NCBI GenBank assembly: GCA_021777755.1
Contig: JAJYDE010000005.1
Location: 42,146-106,145, forward strand
Direction of reading: 5' to 3'
Length of the DNA: 64,000 bases
Origin: Deltaproteobacteria bacterium
GTDB taxonomy: Bacteria; Desulfobacterota; Syntrophobacteria; Syntrophobacterales; Syntrophobacteraceae
Shown: piece by piece, positions 44,478-54,696 of the stretch
Layout of the letters: each line of letters begins with the position of its first letter
How positions within the stretch are numbered: the first letter of the stretch is position 1
Program-made: the position numbers and the translations under genes
The notes under the pieces: generated by a model
The model's input: only the letters and a program-made list of their open reading frames with translations
Database searches by the model: none
What the model was told of the DNA's origin: nothing

Positions 44478-46136
44478 ATGTTGAAATCTCAAAGACGAGC
44501 ACCCGGAGGGGGAAGACAATGGAAGGCAGCCGCCATCCTTAAGGTGCTGTTGTTCGCATTCTTCCTTTCGGGGCCGGGGGTGGCCGCCGCCCAGGAGAGC
44601 GTTGCCGAGCAGCTCCTCGATATTATGAAGGCAAGGCATGAGATAAGCGAAAAGCAATACAACGACTTGAGGAAACAGGCGCAAAGGGAAAAGGCCGCCA
44701 TGCGGGCGGCCATCACCAGACAGGTTGAAAAGGAGTTGGCCGGGCAGAAGGCGGCCATCGCCGATCAGGTGAAAAAGCAGGCGGCGGAACAGAAAAAAAC
44801 GCGGGCCGCCGAAGTAGCGGCGCAGGTAAAGGCGGCGCAGGCCAAAATCGAGAAGGAGGAAAACCCCCACGGGTTCCACACCGTATGGCGAAACGGTATT
44901 GTCACTGAAAGCAAGGACGGGGCTTTCAAACTGCATGTCGGCGGGTACGGAGAAACAGATTTTGGCTCGATGAACGCCGGGGCGGACATGAAGGGGCTGG
45001 CAAAAACGACCGGTACGACCGCAACCGGCCATGGGGCCGAGATAAGAAGGCTGCGGCCCACGATTACCGGAACCCTGTACGGCAATGTCGATTTCGAGTC
45101 CCAAATGGATTTCGGCGACGGAAACGTCAGAGTTACCAATTTATGGGCCAGGCTGAACGACGTTCCTTACATCGGGCATGTGGTGGTCGGCCATCAGAAG
45201 GAGAACTTCTCCCTGGAGGAGCTGACCTCCGATGAATGGACAACATTCATGGAGCGCGCGCTTCCCAATACTTTTGCCGTCGGCAATGTGAACAAGGATT
45301 ACAATACGGGCGTAAAGACCTACGACCAGGAACTGGATGACCGCCTGACCTGGGCACTGGGAGCTTTCATCAACCAGAGCAATCCTTCCGGGAGCTTTTT
45401 CAACGACTATGAAAACACCGATCTTGTGGCGCGGCTAACCGCGCTTCCGTGGTACGAGGACAAGGGTTACTACCTGCTCCACATCGGTTGCGGCTATTCT
45501 TACCGAGCCCGCAAGACAAACCACCCAACCCTGGATTACCAGAGTACGCCCGAGTTTCATCTGACCAACCTCAATACGATAGACACGGGCCTTCTGCCGG
45601 CCACGGCCGCCAACACCGTCAACCCGGAACTGGGGCTTGGAGTCGGCCCTTTCTCGCTTCACGCCGAGTATTTCAACTCCATGGTCAATGCGAACACCAA
45701 ACTGACATACAACACCGTTTCCAATCTGGCTGGAACAAAAATCCTCAATCCCGATTTTGAAGGATACTACGCCGAAGCAGCCTATTTTATCACCGGCGAG
45801 CACAGGCCCTACGACGTGAACGAGGGGATCTTCACCAGAACCGTTCCATTCCGCAATTTCAACACCAAAACCGGGGGGACGGGAGCATGGGAGCTGACCG
45901 CGCGTTTTTCCCACGCGAACCTGACGAGCGGCGGGGTAACCGGCGGAAACGAAAATGACGTGACTTTGGGTGTCAACTGGTACTGGAACCCGAATGTGAA
46001 GTTGGCCCTAAACTATATTTTTGCTCGCGTTTATGATCGGACTTATGTGGCCGGTGTCGGAAACCGCGCCTTTCTGAAAACGATGTCCGACGATGATGCC
46101 AATATAGTGGCCATGCGGATGCTGTTCGACTTCTGA
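44478..46136 (+). CDS. OprP/OprO-like outer-membrane porin
   Basis: The 552-residue protein has a signal peptide ('LLFAFFLSGPGVAAAQ'), a charged coiled coil (about 35-120, 'VAEQLLDIMKARHEISEKQY' then Ala/Lys/Gln-rich), and a beta-barrel domain of the phosphate-selective porin O/P type ('LRPTITGTLYGNVDFESQMD', 'GHVVVGHQKENFSLEELTSD'). It ends in Phe ('RMLFDF'), the outer-membrane insertion signal. Specificity is not visible. The ATG at 44478 (after 'ggaggggg') is preferred over 44448. A terminator follows. Confidence 0.9.
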   Translation: MLKSQRRAPGGGRQWKAAAILKVLLFAFFLSGPGVAAAQESVAEQLLDIMKARHEISEKQYNDLRKQAQREKAAMRAAITRQVEKELAGQKAAIADQVKKQAAEQKKTRAAEVAAQVKAAQAKIEKEENPHGFHTVWRNGIVTESKDGAFKLHVGGYGETDFGSMNAGADMKGLAKTTGTTATGHGAEIRRLRPTITGTLYGNVDFESQMDFGDGNVRVTNLWARLNDVPYIGHVVVGHQKENFSLEELTSDEWTTFMERALPNTFAVGNVNKDYNTGVKTYDQELDDRLTWALGAFINQSNPSGSFFNDYENTDLVARLTALPWYEDKGYYLLHIGCGYSYRARKTNHPTLDYQSTPEFHLTNLNTIDTGLLPATAANTVNPELGLGVGPFSLHAEYFNSMVNANTKLTYNTVSNLAGTKILNPDFEGYYAEAAYFITGEHRPYDVNEGIFTRTVPFRNFNTKTGGTGAWELTARFSHANLTSGGVTGGNENDVTLGVNWYWNPNVKLALNYIFARVYDRTYVAGVGNRAFLKTMSDDDANIVAMRMLFDF

Positions 46137-46189
46137 TCGGCAAGTGGACCGGCCTGCCTGCAACAACCCGCCTTGTAAGTATTTCCCCC

Positions 46190-46219
46190 CCGGACGGACC
46201 CGAGCTGTCCGGTTTTTTT
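46190..46219 (+). terminator. Rho-independent terminator of the first porin
   Basis: A 6-bp stem ccggac / gtccgg with an 11-base loop and a run of seven T. Its sequence resembles the terminator after the second porin. Confidence 0.8.
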
Positions 46220-46314
46220 ATCAATTCTTCGGACCAAATCCGACGGTGGGCTATCGTTTCGAGTCCGTTATCGGGGGTATCAACTGCAAGTTTAGGTCCC
46301 CTTTCGTAACGCAA

Positions 46315-46343
46315 TTGACATAAATGTGAACCTCTGCTGTAAC
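46315..46343 (+). promoter_or_regulatory. Predicted promoter for the second porin
   Basis: A perfect -35 (ttgaca) and a -10-like tgtaac are separated by 17 bases. Transcription from here would give a 5' leader of roughly 255 bases before the porin start, which leaves room for regulation by structure or small RNA. Confidence 0.45.
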
Positions 46344-46605
46344 ACTTCTTCTGTACAACCAATCGCGTAACTCGAAAAGAAGCGGGGAACCGGCAGCCTG
46401 AAAAATCACGTTCTGAATCTTTTCACGATTCAATCAGAAAAGAGACTGGAGGCGTTCGCCGCCGGCCGGGCCGGGGCCGAGCGGGTGAATGGCTGTTTTT
46501 GCGCGTGGAAGGGGGTGAAGATTAGCCTTTTTGGTATTAAACATCGACAGGGGCCGACTTGGAAAGAACTTGGCAGGAATTCTTGAGGAGAAAAGAGGAG
46601 ATTTT

Positions 46606-48351
46606 ATGAGCACCTTGGGAGGAAACTGGAGGAGGATCGCATCGTTTGCGCTCGTTCTCTTCTTTATTTTTTCCATCGCCCGACAGACCCGGGCCGTTGC
46701 CGGCCAATCGTTGGCCGAGCAGCTTCTGGAGATCATGAGGGCCAATCACCAGATAAGCGAAGCGCAATATAAGAAATTGAAAAAGCAGGCGCAAGCGCAA
46801 AGGGCCGCCCAGCTCAGAACGGAAAAAGAGTACAAGCAACTGAAAAGACAGGTCAGGGAACAAAGGGCCGCGACTGAGGACCGGCAAATCAAGACCGAAT
46901 CCCAGGTTCAGCAATTGAAGCAGCAGAGTGCCGCAACGCAAGCCGCCGTTGCCAAAGCGAGCCTGATCACTCCCGGTGGCAAGAACATTTCCACTAACGA
47001 CCAGTTGCGTCAAACGGGCACCGGAAACGGCGGCGGGGGTGTCAACTTCAACATGAAGGGCGTTAACGTAAACATAGGGGGTTTTATAGAAGCCGCCGGC
47101 TTCTACCGCAACAGATGGCTTGGCGCCGATGTGGATGCGCCGTTTCAAAACCTTCCTCTGGGCTATTCACCTCACGCTTTCCAGGACGAAACAAGGTTTT
47201 CGGCTCGTCAGAGCAGGATCTCGATTCGTGCCCAGGGAGATGTTTCCCCCACCGTGCACGTTGGCGGCTACTACGAGATGGACTTTTTGGGCGCCGCGCC
47301 GAGTGCGAACTCCAACGAGTCCAATTCTTACAATTTGCGCATCAGGCATCTTTTCACAACGGCCGACTGGGACACCTTCGGCCTGCACCTGTTAGGCGGT
47401 CAAACCTGGTCGCTTATCACAATGAACAGTAAGGGAATAGAACCTTTCACAGTGGACAACCCCCTCACTATCGACGCACAGTACGTACCGGGCTTCAACT
47501 GGACGCGCCAGCCCCAGTTCCGTCTCGTAAAAGATTGGGACAAAACCTATTGGCTTGGCATTTCGGTTGAAAGCCCGTCCACAGCTGTCGGAGGGGTGGC
47601 GCCGGGAACAACCAATTACGCCGTAAACCAGCCGCCGCTCTCGGGTCTTTTCGCAAGCAACCTGTCGGTCAACGATATGCCCGATGTGGTGGAAAAGGCG
47701 GCCTGGGACGCTCCATTCGGCCATCTCGAGCTTTTCAACCTCACTCGTCAATTCCAATCGAATCTGATAGTGGGCACCGGCGCATCAAAGAACCTCAACG
47801 ATCAAAGCATCGTTGGCGATGCCGTGGGCGGGGCCGCCATCATACCGATTCCTTTTGTTCAGGGATTGCATGCCGAGGCAAGCGCCATGTACGGCCAAGG
47901 TATAGGACGCTATGGTTCCGGCCAGCTGCCCGACGCCACGTGGGATTCAACCGGGGCGATCAAGCCCATCACCGCGCTCCATCTTCTGGGCAACCTGACC
48001 TGGAGTCCATGCAAGGAATGGACCTTCTATGCCTATTACGGCCTTGAGCAGGCACAAAGAAGCTACTCCGGCTCAAGTTTCGGATATGGCAATCCCGATA
48101 TCAACGTCACTGTCCCATACCTCGACCCCACCTACAAATTCCAGGGCGCGGTAAAAAAAGTTGCACAGTTCACTCTCGGTGAGTGGTGGAATTTCTACCA
48201 CGGCGATTTCGGAAATATGGTGTGGGGCCTGCAATATTCCTATACCACGGACACATTTTTCAGCGGCACGAACGGCGCCGGCTCCGCGCTCTCGGGACCG
48301 CAGTCAAACGATAACATGTTTTATACAAGCCTGCGTTACTACTGGAACTGA
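46606..48351 (+). CDS. Outer-membrane porin with coiled-coil N-terminus
   Basis: This is a 581-residue exported protein with signal peptide ('FALVLFFIFSIARQTRAVAG'), the segment 'LAEQLLEIMRANHQISEAQY' followed by a long Gln/Arg-rich coiled coil, and a beta-barrel domain ('RFSARQSRISIRAQGDVSPT', 'VGGYYEMDFLGA', 'GLHLLGGQTWSLIT'). The barrel resembles DcaP-like trimeric porins more than OprP. It ends 'TSLRYYWN', without a terminal Phe. The ATG at 46606 follows 'aagaggag'. It is paralogous to the preceding porin at least in the N-terminal segment. Confidence 0.85.
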   Translation: MSTLGGNWRRIASFALVLFFIFSIARQTRAVAGQSLAEQLLEIMRANHQISEAQYKKLKKQAQAQRAAQLRTEKEYKQLKRQVREQRAATEDRQIKTESQVQQLKQQSAATQAAVAKASLITPGGKNISTNDQLRQTGTGNGGGGVNFNMKGVNVNIGGFIEAAGFYRNRWLGADVDAPFQNLPLGYSPHAFQDETRFSARQSRISIRAQGDVSPTVHVGGYYEMDFLGAAPSANSNESNSYNLRIRHLFTTADWDTFGLHLLGGQTWSLITMNSKGIEPFTVDNPLTIDAQYVPGFNWTRQPQFRLVKDWDKTYWLGISVESPSTAVGGVAPGTTNYAVNQPPLSGLFASNLSVNDMPDVVEKAAWDAPFGHLELFNLTRQFQSNLIVGTGASKNLNDQSIVGDAVGGAAIIPIPFVQGLHAEASAMYGQGIGRYGSGQLPDATWDSTGAIKPITALHLLGNLTWSPCKEWTFYAYYGLEQAQRSYSGSSFGYGNPDINVTVPYLDPTYKFQGAVKKVAQFTLGEWWNFYHGDFGNMVWGLQYSYTTDTFFSGTNGAGSALSGPQSNDNMFYTSLRYYWN

Positions 48352-49106
48352 CCGGTTTGCGCGAGGCCGCCCCCATGGGGCCTAGCGCGCCTTTGATTTT
48401 CCGCCCCGGACGGATGATCTCCGTCCGGTTTTTTTATCGGCAAAGCAAGAAAGAAAGCTTTTCTCATTTCCCCATATCTGCTATGTAATCACCCTGTGGT
48501 GGTGTAAAGTCGATTTTGCAACATTTGCCAGGCTGGAAAACTGGTGCTTGCCTTCATGTCAAGGATTGCGAGGGCCGATTCAGCAAACGGAAGCGCCGGG
48601 AGAAATCGAGTCTTACTCGAAAGAGCGCGAAAAACCCGCCTTCGTGAAACAAGCCGCTAAGCCTTGGCTGTTTCACTCAAAATCAATTGACACTGCCTGT
48701 TTATCATTTGGCTATGGAAGCTATTACCGGGGGGAGAGCAACGGTTTCCGGCCACCCGAAGCCGTCTCGGGCCAAGTTGCGTTTTTTGCGCCAACTTGAT
48801 GGTCGGGGCGGTGACTTCTCTCTTGTTGTTCTTCTCGAAAATGTCGGGGTCCGGCTGATAGATTGCCGGAGTGTGCAGCGGGCGCAGCCCCGAGGTTTTG
48901 CCGTGCCTTGAGCCGGGGCTTGGGATGATGGACCCGGGCAGGCAGGCTTTTGGAAGCTCACCTCCGGGGGCGGTCCCCATTTGCCGTTCCGAGGCAATCG
49001 GGGGATGCAGCCTTGAGTGCTTCCCCCGGTTCATTCGACGCGGTGTGCGGCGGCACGGTCACAGTCTGATTTCCAGTCACGGAGAAGGGGTCGCGGACAG
49101 ATTATC
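48352..49106. other. Long intergenic region before the RND operon
   Basis: About 755 bases. It holds the second porin's terminator (48406-48435) and a hairpin-like caagttgcg...caacttg around 48772-48799. A minus-strand ORF (48657-49034) and several plus-strand ORFs have no domain or ribosome site. A ttgaca at 48678-48683 lacks a matching -10. The promoter of the RND operon must lie here but was not pinned down. Confidence 0.4.
48406..48435 (+). terminator. Rho-independent terminator of the second porin
   Basis: A perfect 8-bp stem ccggacgg / ccgtccgg with a 7-base loop followed by seven T. Confidence 0.9.
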
Positions 49107-50207
49107 ATGGGATGGAAAAAGAATACACTCGCTGTTGGTACGATACTTTTGTGCGGTGCGGCCTTCATAGTTTTAACGGTTGCCAGGCATCCCGGCAAAC
49201 CGGCGGAGGCCGAGGCACAGACGGCGCCTAAAACCGTGGCGGTCGTCAAGGTGGAACGTACAAATTTGGCGCGAACCGTTATGCTTGAAGCCGAAATGCG
49301 CCCGTGGGAACAGATCAACGTTCACGCCAAGGTGTCGGGCTACCTCAAGACGATCAACGTCGATATCGGCGACAAGGTGAAAAAGGGCGAGGTCCTGGCA
49401 ACGCTCGAAGTCCCGGAACAACAACAGGACCAGGCGAAGGCCCAGGCCGATTACACGGTGGCAAAACTCAATTTCGAGCGGATCGAAGCAGTCATAAAGC
49501 AACATCCCGGTCTTTTGGCCCAACAGGAAGTCGATGACGCGCAGGGAAAATGCGAGCAGGCCAAGGCCGCTTACGAACGTACCAAGATATTGTCCGACTA
49601 CGCCAACATCATTGCGCCTTTCGACGGGGTCATAACGAAGCGCTCGGTTGATCCGGGGGCACTCGTGCAGGCCGGAACGGCCTCCGAGACCCAGAGCCTT
49701 CCCATCGTTCATCTGGCCGATATTTACAAACTGCGACTCGATTTTCCGGCCCCGGAGCAGATCGTGCGGCAGATGTACGTGGGCATGCCGGTCGATGTGG
49801 TCATTCATGCGGCTAAGGAAACGGTGCACAGCCAGGTGGCGCGCATGTCGGATGCGGTCGATCCCTCCACACGCACCATGATCGTCGAGGTCGATCTGGA
49901 CAACAAGGAGCTGAAGCTCAAGCCCGGCATGTATGCGGACGCAACCGTTCCCCTGGCGGCGAAAAAGGATGCCCTGGCCGCGCCCATGCAAGCCGTTATC
50001 ATGGGCAAACACCCGGAGGTATGGGTGGTCGACAAGCAAAACATGGTCCACAAACGGACCGTCACCCTGGGCATTCGTACCCCGAACAAGGTCGAAATCA
50101 CAAAAGGGGTGTCCGAGGGCGACCTGCTGATATTCGGAGAACATGAAAACATCATCGACGGTATGACGGTTACGCCAAAACTTATGCCCCACAACGGATT
50201 AGAATAA
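49107..50207 (+). CDS. RND efflux periplasmic adaptor (membrane fusion protein)
   Basis: The 366-residue adaptor has an N-terminal anchor or signal ('TLAVGTILLCGAAFIVLTVA'), the lipoyl/biotinyl halves ('INVHAKVSGYLKTINVDIGD' and 'ANIIAPFDGVITKRSVDPGA'), a helical hairpin and a beta-barrel region ('LRLDFPAPEQIVRQMYVGMP'). It bridges the inner-membrane permease to TolC. The ATG at 49107 is used rather than the tracked 49017, because the signal helix begins right after it. The permease gene starts 3 bp after the stop. Confidence 0.93.
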   Translation: MGWKKNTLAVGTILLCGAAFIVLTVARHPGKPAEAEAQTAPKTVAVVKVERTNLARTVMLEAEMRPWEQINVHAKVSGYLKTINVDIGDKVKKGEVLATLEVPEQQQDQAKAQADYTVAKLNFERIEAVIKQHPGLLAQQEVDDAQGKCEQAKAAYERTKILSDYANIIAPFDGVITKRSVDPGALVQAGTASETQSLPIVHLADIYKLRLDFPAPEQIVRQMYVGMPVDVVIHAAKETVHSQVARMSDAVDPSTRTMIVEVDLDNKELKLKPGMYADATVPLAAKKDALAAPMQAVIMGKHPEVWVVDKQNMVHKRTVTLGIRTPNKVEITKGVSEGDLLIFGEHENIIDGMTVTPKLMPHNGLE

Positions 50208-50209
50208 TT

Positions 50210-53200
50210 ATGTCTCGCTTTGCGCTGAAATTTCCCTACCTGATTATCGTCTGCTCCCTTATCGTGTGCGTCGTGGGCTTGAGCAGCCTTTTGCGCATGC
50301 CCGTCGATCTGTTCCCGGAGATCAAAATTCCCGTCGTTGTGGTTGCGACCTTCTATAACGGCATGCCGGCCGAAGAGATAGAAAACGACATAACGGGTCG
50401 CTTCGAGCGCTTCTTCACCCTTGGCAGCGGCATCGATCATATCGAATCGACTTCGCTTCCGAGCACCAGCCTCATAAAGATCTATTTTCAGCCGGGGACC
50501 TCGGCCGATTCGGCTGTTACGGAAATCTCCAACCTTGCCATGGCGGATCTGCGGCGCCTTCCGCCCGGAACCCTTCCGCCGGTGGTGTTGAAATTCGACG
50601 CATCGAGCCTTCCCGTATGTCTTATCACCCTCAAGGCCAAGGGGATGAACGAGGCCGAACTGCGCGACATGGGCCAGTACAACGTCCGAAACCAGGTCGC
50701 CAATATTCCCGGGGCCTCGGTGCCCATGCCCTTTGGCGGCAAATACCGGCAGATCATGGTTTATGTGGACCCGGCAAGGCTTCAGGCCTACAAGCTTAGC
50801 GCCATGGACGTCGTGCGTGCCGTAAACAAGGCCAACCTGATCCTGCCTGCGGGCGACGTCAAGATCGGCCCCTTCGACTACAACCTGTTCACCAACAGCC
50901 AGATTGACGACCCCAAGGACATCAACCATGTGCCGCTCAAGACCATCGGCAACAAATCCGTTATGGTCGGTGATATCGGGCAGGCCATTGACGCGGCCGA
51001 AATCCAGTTGAACACGGTGCTGATCGACGGGCAGCCTTCGGTGTATCTGCCCATCATGAAGCAGGGCGGGGACTCCAACACGATCTCGATCGTAAACGAC
51101 GTGAAAAAAACCGTCGCCCACTTGATGGACGTTCCAAAGAACCTGGTTGCCAAGGTCGTTTTCGATCAATCGGTTTTCGTCAAGAACGCCATCGACAATC
51201 TTGTTCATGAAGGCTTGATGGGTCTTGTTTTGACCGGCCTCATGATCCTGGTGTTTCTGGGAAGCCTCAGCGCCACGGCGGGCGTGTTTCTTTCCATCCC
51301 GCTTTCGGCCCTGGCCACATTCATCGTTTTGGGCATGGGTGGCAGCACGGTCAACGCCATGATCCTTGGCGGACTGGCACTGGTGTTTTCGCGCCTCATC
51401 GACAACTCGGTGGTGGTTCTCGAAAACATCTTCCGCCACATCGAAGAAGGCGAAAATCCCCAAAAGGCCTCGGCGGTCGGAGGTACCGAGGTGGCCCTGC
51501 CCGTTTTGGCCGCCACTCTTACTTCGGCCATAGTTTTTTTCCCTGTGACATTTCTATACGGCGTGAGCCGATTTTTGTTTTCCGCTCTTGCCCTGGCCGT
51601 CGTTTTGGCCCTGTTCGCTTCTTACGTCGTGGCCATGACGGTCATGCCGCTTTTTTGCTCGAAGTTTTTGAAGGGCATGGAGCATCACGGCGAAGGCGCG
51701 GAGGACGCGGGCAAGAAAATCTCCTTTGGCGCACGCTTCAACAAATGGTTCAATGGTCATTTTGAAAGACTTTTGGGCCTCTACGACCGTTGGGTGGCCA
51801 AGGTCCTGGCTCGCCCGGCCATGTCTCTTGTCATACTTTCGGCCATGTGCGGGGCGCTGCTTCTGTCGGCTCATTTCATGGACGTTTCCTATTTTCCGCG
51901 CACAGACCCCGGTCAGTTCGTAATCAACATCAAGGCTCCGACCGGCACCCGCCTTGAAAGGACAACCCAAAACGTCCGGAAGGTCATAAAGATCGTTCGC
52001 GGCGTGGTAAAACCCTCCGACCTCGACGTCATCGTTGCAAACGTGGGTGTCCAGCCCGGTTTTTCCTCGATTTACACGAGCAACACGGGATCGCACACCG
52101 CCTTCGTGCTCGTAAGCCTCAAGGAAGCACACAAGATCGGCAGCTACGCCTACATGGACAGGGTGAGAAAAGCCGTAAGCGAGAAGTTGCCGCATTTGAG
52201 GACCTATTTCCAATCGGGAGGCCTTGTCGACGCGGTACTCAACATGGGGCTGCCCGCGCCCATCGACATCCAGGTCGAGGGCTCGAACATGGATAAATCC
52301 TATGAGACCGCGGTTGGCCTGGCGCGGCAAATCCGCACACTGCCGGGGGTGAGCGACGTGTTCATCCCCCAGGACATCAACGCCCCCTCGCTTCGCATCG
52401 ACGTCGACCGCGAGCACGCAAGCGATATGGGACTCTCACAAAAAGAAGTCGTGGACAATATCATCACGACGCTCACCTCCAACCAGATGATCGCACCGAG
52501 CTACTGGGTCGATCCCAAGAGCGGAAACGACTACATGCTGACCGTGCAGTACCCGGAAAACGCGGTCAAAACGCTCGACGATCTGCGCAATATTCCCATC
52601 CGCGCCTCATCGCAGCATGAAACGACCCCGCTCGACACATTGGCGGACATAACGCAAACCTACGCCCCTTCGGTGGTAAACCATTATCAGTTGAAGCGCG
52701 TGATCGACATCTATGTTGCCCCCAAGGGCGAAAACCTGGGCGCGGTTGCCTCACAGGTTAAGGATATTATCGCCAAGGCCAAAATCTCCAAAAATCTCAG
52801 GGTGAGGCTGCGCGGTTCGGTTCAAGCCATGAGGCAGTCCTTTTACAGTTTCGGCACAGGTCTTCTGCTGGCCGTTTTGCTGATTTACCTGGTGCTGGTG
52901 GCGCAGTTCAAATCGTTTGTCGATCCCTTTATCATCCTTCTGGCCGTCCCGCCGGGGATTGCGGGGGCGGTGGCGATACTGGCCGGCACGGGCACCACGC
53001 TCAACATCATGTCCCTCATGGGCATCGTTATGCTGGTGGGTATGACGGTCTCCAATTCTATTTTGATCGTCGAATACGCCCATCGACTTCGCGAAGAAGA
53101 AGCCCTGAGCGTCGCGGACGCCATCGCGCGTTCCTGCCGCGTGCGTCTGCGCCCGATTTTGATGACCTCTCTTGCGACCGTGATCGGTCTAATCCCCATG

Positions 53201-53380
53201 GCGCTTGCGCTCAATACGGGAAGCGAGGCTTACGCGTCTCTTGCCCGCGTGATAATCGGGGGTTTGACCTTGTCGGTCCTGCTCACAGTCTTCTTTGTTC
53301 CCGCTGCCTTCCTGCTGGTGTATCGAAACAAGCCCCGCCAATCCAAGGAAGAGCCGCATCATGTAATGGGTGACGTATGA
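50210..53380 (+). CDS. RND efflux permease (AcrB/CzcA superfamily)
   Basis: The 1056-residue inner-membrane pump has the usual two repeats of six helices and two large periplasmic loops ('MSRFALKFPYLIIVCSLIVC' starts TM1; 'FPEIKIPVVVVATFYNGMPA' follows). In TM4 the pair corresponding to AcrB Asp407-Asp408 reads Asp398-Asn399 ('RLIDNSVVVLENI'), and in TM10 the relay Lys is Ser948 ('GMTVSNSILIVEYAHRLRE'). The proton pathway is therefore not the textbook one. Substrate is unknown; the context (adaptor, TolC) gives a full tripartite pump. Confidence 0.95.
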   Translation: MSRFALKFPYLIIVCSLIVCVVGLSSLLRMPVDLFPEIKIPVVVVATFYNGMPAEEIENDITGRFERFFTLGSGIDHIESTSLPSTSLIKIYFQPGTSADSAVTEISNLAMADLRRLPPGTLPPVVLKFDASSLPVCLITLKAKGMNEAELRDMGQYNVRNQVANIPGASVPMPFGGKYRQIMVYVDPARLQAYKLSAMDVVRAVNKANLILPAGDVKIGPFDYNLFTNSQIDDPKDINHVPLKTIGNKSVMVGDIGQAIDAAEIQLNTVLIDGQPSVYLPIMKQGGDSNTISIVNDVKKTVAHLMDVPKNLVAKVVFDQSVFVKNAIDNLVHEGLMGLVLTGLMILVFLGSLSATAGVFLSIPLSALATFIVLGMGGSTVNAMILGGLALVFSRLIDNSVVVLENIFRHIEEGENPQKASAVGGTEVALPVLAATLTSAIVFFPVTFLYGVSRFLFSALALAVVLALFASYVVAMTVMPLFCSKFLKGMEHHGEGAEDAGKKISFGARFNKWFNGHFERLLGLYDRWVAKVLARPAMSLVILSAMCGALLLSAHFMDVSYFPRTDPGQFVINIKAPTGTRLERTTQNVRKVIKIVRGVVKPSDLDVIVANVGVQPGFSSIYTSNTGSHTAFVLVSLKEAHKIGSYAYMDRVRKAVSEKLPHLRTYFQSGGLVDAVLNMGLPAPIDIQVEGSNMDKSYETAVGLARQIRTLPGVSDVFIPQDINAPSLRIDVDREHASDMGLSQKEVVDNIITTLTSNQMIAPSYWVDPKSGNDYMLTVQYPENAVKTLDDLRNIPIRASSQHETTPLDTLADITQTYAPSVVNHYQLKRVIDIYVAPKGENLGAVASQVKDIIAKAKISKNLRVRLRGSVQAMRQSFYSFGTGLLLAVLLIYLVLVAQFKSFVDPFIILLAVPPGIAGAVAILAGTGTTLNIMSLMGIVMLVGMTVSNSILIVEYAHRLREEEALSVADAIARSCRVRLRPILMTSLATVIGLIPMALALNTGSEAYASLARVIIGGLTLSVLLTVFFVPAAFLLVYRNKPRQSKEEPHHVMGDV

Positions 53381-54696
53381 AAAAGCTCTATCTCGTTGCA
53401 CTTGTATTGGCGCTTTTCCCGCTTCGCGCCTCCGGCGCGCAGCGTCCGATCGAACATCTCACTTTGGCCCGGGCCCAGCGCATCGCGCTGGCCAATCATC
53501 CCGCCGCCAAGGTGAGCACCTATGAAACGATCGCCGCGGGGGAAGATGTGGCGATTATTCGCTCCATTTTGTTTCCGCAGGTTCAAGGGGCCGCCATAGG
53601 CGCTCTGGCCGACAATTATGACTCGCGCCTTGCCGCCATTGGCGGCATTAACAACCCCACCGTGCTTCAACGCGGTTCCGGGGGGGTGGCCATAAGCCAG
53701 CTCGTCACGGACTTCGGCCGCACCAACGCGATGATCCAGGCGGCCCGTGCCTCCCTCAAGGCTCAGCGCGAAAGGGGCAACTTGACCACCGAGCAGATCC
53801 TTCTTGGCGTAACGCGGGCCTACTATGATCTGCTGCGAGCCCATGCCCTGATGCAAGTGGCCGATCGTACGATGAAAACGCGCCAGACCGTGCTCGACCA
53901 GATCTCGGCCCTGTCGAAAGCCCAACTCAGATCCGACCTCGATGTCGACATGGCCAAGGCCAACGTCGACGATGCCGATCTTTTGATGCTGGAGGCGATA
54001 AACGGTTTGGACAACGCGCGGGCGGAGTTATCCGAGGCCCTGGGGTATGAGAAAACCTACACTTTCATTCTGGACGATAACCCCGAAATCAAGCCGGTCG
54101 CCCGTACGCTCGAGACGGCGGTCAACCAGGCTTTTTGCCAGAATCCGATGTTAAAGGCGCTCCAAGCCGAGTCGGGTGCCGCCCACAAGGTCGCAACGGC
54201 GGCCAAAAGGGAATTTTTCCCCACCATCGTCGCTTTAGGAGCCGCGGGCGGTTCGCCCTACCGCACCTCGGATCTGGACCGCACCTATGGCGCCGCCGCC
54301 CTCAATCTGACCGTGCCCATTTTCACCGGCGGCCGTATTTCGGCCGATGTCCAGAAAGCGGCCGCGAAGGCCGAGGCGGCCTCCATGCGCGTAGCAGTCC
54401 AAAAAGACGAACTGGTTCGCGATGTGCATATGGCTTATCACAATATGCGCAAAGCCTACAAAAGAATCTCCGTAACTCATTCGATGCACAAACATTCGCG
54501 CGAGGCGCTTACCCTTATACAGGCGCGCTATGATATCGGGAAAAGCTCGATCGTGGATCTGAGCATGGCCCAACTTGCAGACACGAAGGCGGCTGTCGCC
54601 GAAACCGATGCCGCCTACGGATATTTTATCAACCGCGCGGTTCTGGACTTTACTATCGGGGACCTTGCTTGTTCCAGCGCGAACACGGCCGAGTGA
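53377..54696 (+). CDS. TolC-family outer-membrane efflux channel
   Basis: The 439-residue protein has a signal peptide ('LYLVALVLALFPLRASGA') and two internally related halves of the outer-membrane efflux domain ('LTLARAQRIALANHPAAKVS', 'LNLTVPIFTGGRISADVQKA'), as in TolC trimers that span the periplasm. It overlaps the permease stop by four bases (ATGA), which indicates coupling. It completes the tripartite export system. Confidence 0.93.
   Translation: MKKLYLVALVLALFPLRASGAQRPIEHLTLARAQRIALANHPAAKVSTYETIAAGEDVAIIRSILFPQVQGAAIGALADNYDSRLAAIGGINNPTVLQRGSGGVAISQLVTDFGRTNAMIQAARASLKAQRERGNLTTEQILLGVTRAYYDLLRAHALMQVADRTMKTRQTVLDQISALSKAQLRSDLDVDMAKANVDDADLLMLEAINGLDNARAELSEALGYEKTYTFILDDNPEIKPVARTLETAVNQAFCQNPMLKALQAESGAAHKVATAAKREFFPTIVALGAAGGSPYRTSDLDRTYGAAALNLTVPIFTGGRISADVQKAAAKAEAASMRVAVQKDELVRDVHMAYHNMRKAYKRISVTHSMHKHSREALTLIQARYDIGKSSIVDLSMAQLADTKAAVAETDAAYGYFINRAVLDFTIGDLACSSANTAE

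What the first reader, a model, noticed from the sequence alone, without database searches (positions are those of the whole stretch)
44478..48351. Two porins share the same N-terminal helix-plus-coiled-coil module
'VAEQLLDIMKARHEISEKQY' and 'LAEQLLEIMRANHQISEAQY' are nearly identical although the barrels differ (OprP-like versus DcaP-like). The segment resembles a SHOCT-like short helix and leads into long coiled coils that could reach through the periplasm or bind peptidoglycan. A shared cap on different barrels suggests a common anchoring or assembly partner.
Basis: partly seen in the sequence, partly recalled or inferred. Interest (0 to 1): 0.5.

Follow-up and report, generated by a model that had tools for sequence, protein, structure and literature searches.

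The report
Shared helical cap on unrelated porins
Two neighbouring outer-membrane channel proteins with unrelated barrels begin with the same short, previously unnamed piece of about 36 amino acids, which related bacteria put on several kinds of channel and which was fitted once onto this second kind of barrel, probably to hold or assemble the channel trimers on the inner side of the outer membrane.

Summary
Porin 1 (44478-46136) has an OprP/OprO barrel. Porin 2 (46606-48351) has a DcaP-type barrel with no Pfam family. Just after the signal peptide both carry the same 36-residue segment: 61% identical, score 115 against a shuffle maximum of 45. The coils behind it match only at the level of composition, and the barrels do not match by sequence.

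The segment is a recurrent N-terminal module. A profile made without porin 2 still finds it. Across the phylum it sits on Porin_O_P, Porin_5 and one barrel outside Pfam. Its two S/T-x-x-E/Q capping boxes imply a helix-turn-helix. It resembles SHOCT (hhalign 91%), but below Pfam's cut-off.

On DcaP-type barrels it occurs in only three genomes of the window's genus. These form one clade, nested among Geobacter-type barrels with no cap or coil, so the module was gained once, presumably from a Porin_O_P relative. Long coils are not part of it: some capped porins have almost none, so reaching peptidoglycan cannot be its general role.

Most likely it is a periplasmic trimer-capping or assembly module. 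That function is inferred, not shown. The novelty is modest: a new variant of known N-terminal porin extensions.

The parts
44478..46136 (+). porin 1: signal peptide, cap, coil, OprP/OprO-type barrel (552 aa)
   Evidence: Pfam Porin_O_P residues 166-552, E 5e-46; PDB OprP 2o4v E 9.4e-9
44592..44699 (+). cap module of porin 1 (residues 39-74, QESVAEQLLDIMKARHEISEKQYNDLRKQAQREKAA)
   Evidence: A5 profile match C16:86737-86844, E 1.5e-17; shuffle test
44700..44840 (+). variable predicted helical coil between cap and barrel of porin 1
   Evidence: AlphaFold helix 58-121 (low confidence); no conserved similarity with porin 2 beyond composition
44973..46133 (+). OprP/OprO-type beta-barrel of porin 1
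   Evidence: Pfam match residues 166-552
46190..46212 (+). intrinsic terminator after porin 1, CCGGACGGACCCGAGCTGTCCGG then T7ATC
46606..48351 (+). porin 2: signal peptide, cap, Q-rich coil, DcaP-type barrel (581 aa; the ATG at 46606 is the likely start, not the TTG at 46531)
   Evidence: homologues start at the same place; Foldseek top hit DcaP 6eus E 1.8e-22
46702..46809 (+). cap module of porin 2 (residues 33-68, GQSLAEQLLEIMRANHQISEAQYKKLKKQAQAQRAA)
   Evidence: HMM built without porin 2 gives 53 bits, best of 1000 shuffles 9.6 bits; A5 match E 3.8e-17
46810..46959 (+). predicted helical coil of porin 2 behind the cap
   Evidence: AlphaFold helix 36-118, pLDDT about 67-82 over residues 41-110
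47041..48348 (+). DcaP-type beta-barrel of porin 2 (residues 146-581)
   Evidence: homologues in other phyla aligned mainly from residue about 141-153; fold match to 6eus
48406..48428 (+). intrinsic terminator after porin 2, near-identical to that after porin 1
   Evidence: 41-base 3' flank alignment score 25 against shuffle maximum 15; only two sites in the window, none expected

Best explanation
The shared segment is a compact N-terminal periplasmic module of about 30-36 residues, a SHOCT-like helix-turn-helix, that sits right behind the signal peptide of several porin barrel families in this phylum. In the window's genus it was fitted once onto a DcaP-type barrel whose close relatives have neither cap nor coil, presumably by recombination with the N-terminal end of a Porin_O_P porin. 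Inferred mechanism: the N-termini of the three subunits meet under the trimer. The hairpins pack there, with or without an intervening coiled coil, and cap, register or stabilise the trimer, or present it to a shared assembly factor. Shown: homology of the cap, its range of barrels, its single clade on DcaP-type barrels, and the variable coil length. Inferred: hairpin geometry, trimer packing, donor, function.
For: Homology beyond composition. Cap on Porin_O_P, Porin_5 and one non-Pfam barrel in other genera. None of the other DcaP-type homologues scanned has it, even those with coils. The capped DcaP barrels form one clade (100/100) inside a 100/99 clade that also holds eight uncapped, coil-less Geobacter-type barrels. 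Two capping boxes: S/T in column 3 (17 of 18) with E/Q in column 6 (18 of 18), and S/T/P in column 19 (17 of 18), with G/H/N in column 16 (16 of 18); hairpin break at residues 53-57 in the low-confidence porin 1 model. SHOCT resemblance. Coil length varies from nearly none upward. Comparable N-terminal periplasmic coils in FapF are trimeric, and DcaP and ScrY are cited there as stabilised by Q-rich trimeric coils (PMC6173795).
Against: The confident model of porin 2 gives one continuous helix (36-118), not a hairpin, though that part rests on three capped sequences and is a monomer. An isolated SHOCT domain did not oligomerise in the published test (PMC3581485). No trimer could be modelled. 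The donor of the cap is not resolved: porin 2's cap is 61% identical both to porin 1 and to the G004 porin.
Confidence: 0.5

Rival explanations
1. The cap is a cell-wall anchor: coil plus cap reach the peptidoglycan and tether the outer membrane, as in OmpM.
For: Long N-terminal helices in both window porins. A porin that tethers through an N-terminal coiled-coil stalk exists: OmpM (PMC10628300). The cap has an invariant tyrosine.
Against: Cap conserved in porins with hardly any coil (cap start to barrel 62-64 residues), too short to span the gap by general knowledge. No known wall-binding family hit. The genome already has five OmpA/Pal-type domains.
Confidence: 0.12
2. The cap is a biogenesis tag: a chaperone or BAM-side factor recognises it during passage to the outer membrane, so any barrel given the cap is handled the same way.
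For: Lies directly behind the signal peptide. Found on several barrel types, which fits recognition independent of the barrel.
Against: No partner gene identified. Most genomes of the family and order lack the profile match, so a dedicated general partner is not evident.
Confidence: 0.22
3. Passive leader swap: recombination joined the local signal peptide plus N-terminus to an incoming barrel, and the segment does little beyond being a tolerated, well-secreted N-terminus.
For: Single clade of capped DcaP barrels. Both porin genes also end in near-identical terminators, fitting exchange of an internal barrel inside a duplicated gene unit.
Against: The cap keeps invariant Y23 and L26 and near-invariant I11 and I18 across distant genera and barrels, which implies selection. 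Porin 2's cap stays 83-88% identical across the three genomes.
Confidence: 0.12
4. Chance or composition: two amphipathic coiled-coil starts that look alike.
For: The coils behind the cap do match only by composition.
Against: 0 of 2000 shuffles approach the cap score. A profile without porin 2 gives 53 bits against 9.6 for the best shuffle, while the other DcaP-type proteins, many with real coils, do not score.
Confidence: 0.02

Closest known systems
SHOCT domain (Pfam PF09851)
   Same: About 30 residues, two short helices, motif G/H-x-I-S/T-x-x-E/Q-F/Y; hhalign probability 91%
   Different: SHOCT is mainly C-terminal and has a three-residue longer turn region; no cap reaches its cut-off; the founding paper does not mention porins
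DcaP (PDB 6eus)
   Same: Barrel fold of porin 2; DcaP also has an N-terminal periplasmic coiled coil (PMC6173795)
   Different: About 18% identity; the N-terminal module of porin 2 is not of DcaP type
Porin_O_P, OprP/OprO (PF07396)
   Same: Barrel of porin 1 and of most capped porins found
   Different: The P. aeruginosa OprP/OprO matches cover the barrel side only, from porin 1 residue 140 onwards
Porin_5 (PF16930)
   Same: Two capped or cap-like members (L114, L124), and L139 matches the model's own positions 4-46 through its cap-like stretch, so a version of the element appears to lie inside the start of this model
   Different: Different barrel; the element is not named there
OmpM of diderm Firmicutes
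   Same: Trimeric porin with an N-terminal periplasmic coiled-coil stalk (PMC10628300)
   Different: OmpM ends in an SLH domain that binds peptidoglycan; no SLH domain here
FapF coiled coil
   Same: N-terminal periplasmic Q-rich coil on an outer-membrane barrel
   Different: Secretion channel; its R-h-x-x-h-E trimer motif is not seen in porin 2 and at best once, in a loosened form, in porin 1

Membership tests
SHOCT (PF09851) | Score above the curated cut-off of 27 bits | tested here: not met
   Best cap 21.6 bits, E 1.7e-4; 4 of 18 caps match at E up to 1
SHOCT (PF09851) | Profile-level similarity of the two-helix motif | tested here: met
   hhalign 91%, score 26.7; 200 column-permuted controls at most 15.5
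SHOCT (PF09851) | Predominantly C-terminal position | tested here: not met
   The cap lies directly after the signal peptide in the capped porins read
Porin_O_P (PF07396), porin 1 | Curated Pfam cut-off over the barrel | tested here: met
   158 bits, cut-off 20.9, residues 166-552
DcaP family, porin 2 | Sequence family match in Pfam | tested here: not met
   No Pfam family on the barrel even at E up to 10
DcaP family, porin 2 | DcaP barrel fold | tested here: met
   6eus is the best PDB match, E 1.8e-22, TM 0.85 by target
DcaP family, porin 2 | Dicarboxylate transport, trimer | not testable with these tools
   Needs purified protein
OmpM-type tethering porin | SLH domain at the end of the coil | tested here: not met
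   No SLH match at E up to 10 on the N-terminal regions

The most novel reading that the evidence does not exclude
The cap is a general, so far unnamed, portable module that makes otherwise unrelated porin barrels use one common periplasmic partner (an assembly factor or a cell-envelope component), and lineages add it to incoming barrels to bring them under the same control.
Probability: 0.2. Interest if true: 0.65.

Novelty: new variant of a known kind. Interest (0 to 1): 0.4.

Why it matters
N-terminal periplasmic extensions of porins are common and mostly unexplained. Here the same small module sits on several barrel families and was, by the tree, added once to a barrel whose close relatives lack it. 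That gives natural with-and-without pairs in which its function can be tested, and a definable motif that annotation pipelines currently miss.

Tried and rejected
Chance or coiled-coil composition: rejected. Recent gene conversion between the two neighbouring genes: not supported, since porin 2's cap is no closer to porin 1 (61% protein, 69% DNA) than to the G004 porin (61%, 72%), and signal-peptide and upstream DNA show no excess similarity. Cap as ancestral part of DcaP: rejected on present sampling. Search of viral contigs for capped porins: nothing. Plasmid search with porin 1: only distant barrels, alignments starting at query residue 132 or later in the hits listed. Viral fold library: no useful match. 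FapF-type trimer motif: not found in porin 2. AlphaFold of porin 1 with two sequences: unusable for the barrel, pLDDT 32. Some weaker profile hits (E 0.001-0.01) are chance, e.g. an RpoC-like frame, L125; others (L128, L130-L132, L137, L138) are real Porin_O_P with a shorter or weaker cap-like start.

Full report
OBSERVATION. The two quoted peptides are in frame at the start of two consecutive + strand genes: porin 1, 44478-46136, and porin 2, 46606-48351. Porin 1's barrel is Porin_O_P (Pfam E 5e-46; PDB OprP 2o4v E 9.4e-9). Porin 2's barrel has no Pfam, NCBIfam or relevant PDB sequence match. Its AlphaFold model (mean pLDDT 78, above 80 over most of the barrel) has A. baumannii DcaP 6eus as best PDB match, E 1.8e-22, TM 0.85 by target length. 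So 'OprP-like versus DcaP-like' is right.

The shared stretch is about 36 residues (44592-44699 and 46702-46809). It is 61% identical in protein and 69% in DNA. The score is 115 against a mean of 25 and a maximum of 45 in 2000 shuffles. The following coils score 50 against 36 (51 of 2000 shuffles reach it), so they match by composition only, and the barrels score like shuffles. In the whole genome the segment occurs three times: porin 1, porin 2 and a 68%-identical paralogue of porin 1 on contig C103.

WIDER CONSERVATION. The segment is present in 7 of 11 genomes of the genus, and in one other genome of the family and one of the class. With an 18-row profile, 16 places in the 395-genome phylum sample score E 0.001 or better. 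All of those read here are the starts of outer-membrane proteins, directly behind a signal peptide. Barrels checked with Pfam are Porin_O_P (porin 1, L104, L108, L123), Porin_5 (L114, L124) and one with no family (L112); the remaining ones were recognised as Porin_O_P-like by reading, not by a separate Pfam run. Genome G058 carries the cap on both a Porin_O_P and a Porin_5 barrel. A weaker cap-like start of L139 matches positions 4-46 of the Porin_5 model itself, so a version of the element seems to be buried, unnamed, in that Pfam model. Shorter forms (KTLEDVLKEKGVITEEDY) start further Porin_O_P porins.

TRANSFER TO A DcaP-TYPE BARREL. The genome scan found 40 loci, 39 of them full relatives of porin 2 in Geobacteraceae, Syntrophaceae, Pseudomonadota, Acidobacteriota and others. 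Two are from the same genus as the window (L043, L044) and are capped. A cap profile built without porin 2 scores porin 2, L043 and L044 at 51-54 bits. The best of 1000 shuffles of porin 2's N-terminus is 9.6 bits, and none of the other DcaP-type proteins appears in the hit list. Those others have either a short linker (Geobacter type) or an ordinary coil of the kind EIQQMQSQIQMLEQKLEAMK. In a tree of barrels only, the three capped proteins are one clade (100/100) nested in a 100/99 clade whose eight other members are Geobacter-type barrels with no coil (with N-termini). One gain of the module in the ancestor of these three is the simplest reading. Only 3 of 26 genomes of the family have this barrel at all, which fits an incoming barrel fitted with a local N-terminus. 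The donor cannot be named: porin 2's cap is equally close to porin 1 and to the G004 porin.

GENE CONTEXT. OprP-type and DcaP-type genes are neighbours in the window's genome and in G001. In G010 they lie on two contigs whose ends share 37 bases and which would place them about 2.9 kb apart, with an opposite-strand gene between. HlyD, RND and outer-membrane efflux genes follow porin 2 here and in G010; in G001 a different HlyD/RND set lies upstream. Both window genes end in near-identical intrinsic terminators, 46190-46212 and 48406-48428, and the same hairpin follows porin 2 of G001 and porin 1 of G010. This suggests separate transcription units. It would fit replacement of a barrel inside a duplicated gene unit, but it may only be a hairpin type common in this genus, which was not tested.

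FORM AND MECHANISM. Columns 3 and 6 of the cap are S/T (17 of 18) and E/Q (18 of 18); column 16 is G/H/N (16 of 18); column 19 is S/T/P (17 of 18); Y23 and L26 are invariant. These are helix-capping boxes with a C-cap between them, so two short helices with a turn are likely (sequence-based inference). The porin 1 model breaks at residues 53-57, but with low confidence. The porin 2 model has one continuous helix 36-118, so the hairpin is not settled. The cap aligns with real SHOCT domains from this phylum at 91% probability, score 26.7 against at most 15.5 in 200 column-permuted controls, but no cap reaches the Pfam cut-off. I therefore call it SHOCT-like, not SHOCT. The SHOCT authors tested and did not support self-oligomerisation, and left partner binding or localisation open (PMC3581485).

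The distance from the cap to the first barrel strand ranges from 62-64 residues (no real coil) to 118-134 in the window-type proteins. The conserved unit is thus the cap, not a periplasm-spanning coil. The genome has five OmpA/Pal-type domains, so it is not a lineage lacking ordinary wall tethers, unlike the OmpM phyla (PMC10628300). The best-supported reading is a small periplasmic module at the trimer axis that caps or helps assemble the porin trimer, or presents it to a shared factor; periplasmic trimeric coils of DcaP, ScrY and FapF are the nearest working analogy (PMC6173795). This functional step is inferred.

LIMITS. The capped DcaP clade rests on three genomes; the two named ones are metagenome assemblies. 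Phyla other than the window's could not be sampled with the cap profile. No trimer prediction was possible. The organism is named only through its neighbours ('Deltaproteobacteria bacterium' MAGs BP6.bin57 and DX1.bin82). A literature search of the open-access library found no paper linking SHOCT and porins in substance, but most subscription papers are not in that library.

Noticed in passing
46190-46212 and 48406-48428: The two porin genes end in near-identical intrinsic terminators (CCGGACGGA...TCCGG T7ATC), also found after porin 2 of G001 (L044 9812-9834) and porin 1 of G010 (L035 11705-11727). May mark a duplicated gene unit or a genus-typical hairpin.
   Followed up: partly
49107-54696: A HlyD / RND / outer-membrane efflux set directly follows porin 2 and is 77-90% identical in G010 in the same order; G001 has a different, about 30-35% identical HlyD/RND set upstream of its porin pair instead.
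   Followed up: partly
L139 (protein on - strand, 424-1716): A cap-like N-terminus matches positions 4-46 of Pfam Porin_5 (PF16930) although the rest of this barrel does not, suggesting that the Pfam model begins with this module.
   Followed up: partly
L038 (G005 contig C18) and L039 (G007 contig C267): Capped Porin_O_P genes occur in tandem arrays (three in G005, two in G007), so the family expands locally in this genus.
   Followed up: no
G000 contig C103, 30479-32140 (L002): A second OprP-type porin, 68% identical to porin 1 with the same cap, elsewhere in the genome next to an alpha/beta hydrolase-like gene and a gene for a helix-turn-helix plus substrate-binding-like protein.
   Followed up: no
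46531-46605: The longest ORF of porin 2 starts at a TTG 75 bases upstream; homologues show that the ATG at 46606 is the likely start.
   Followed up: yes
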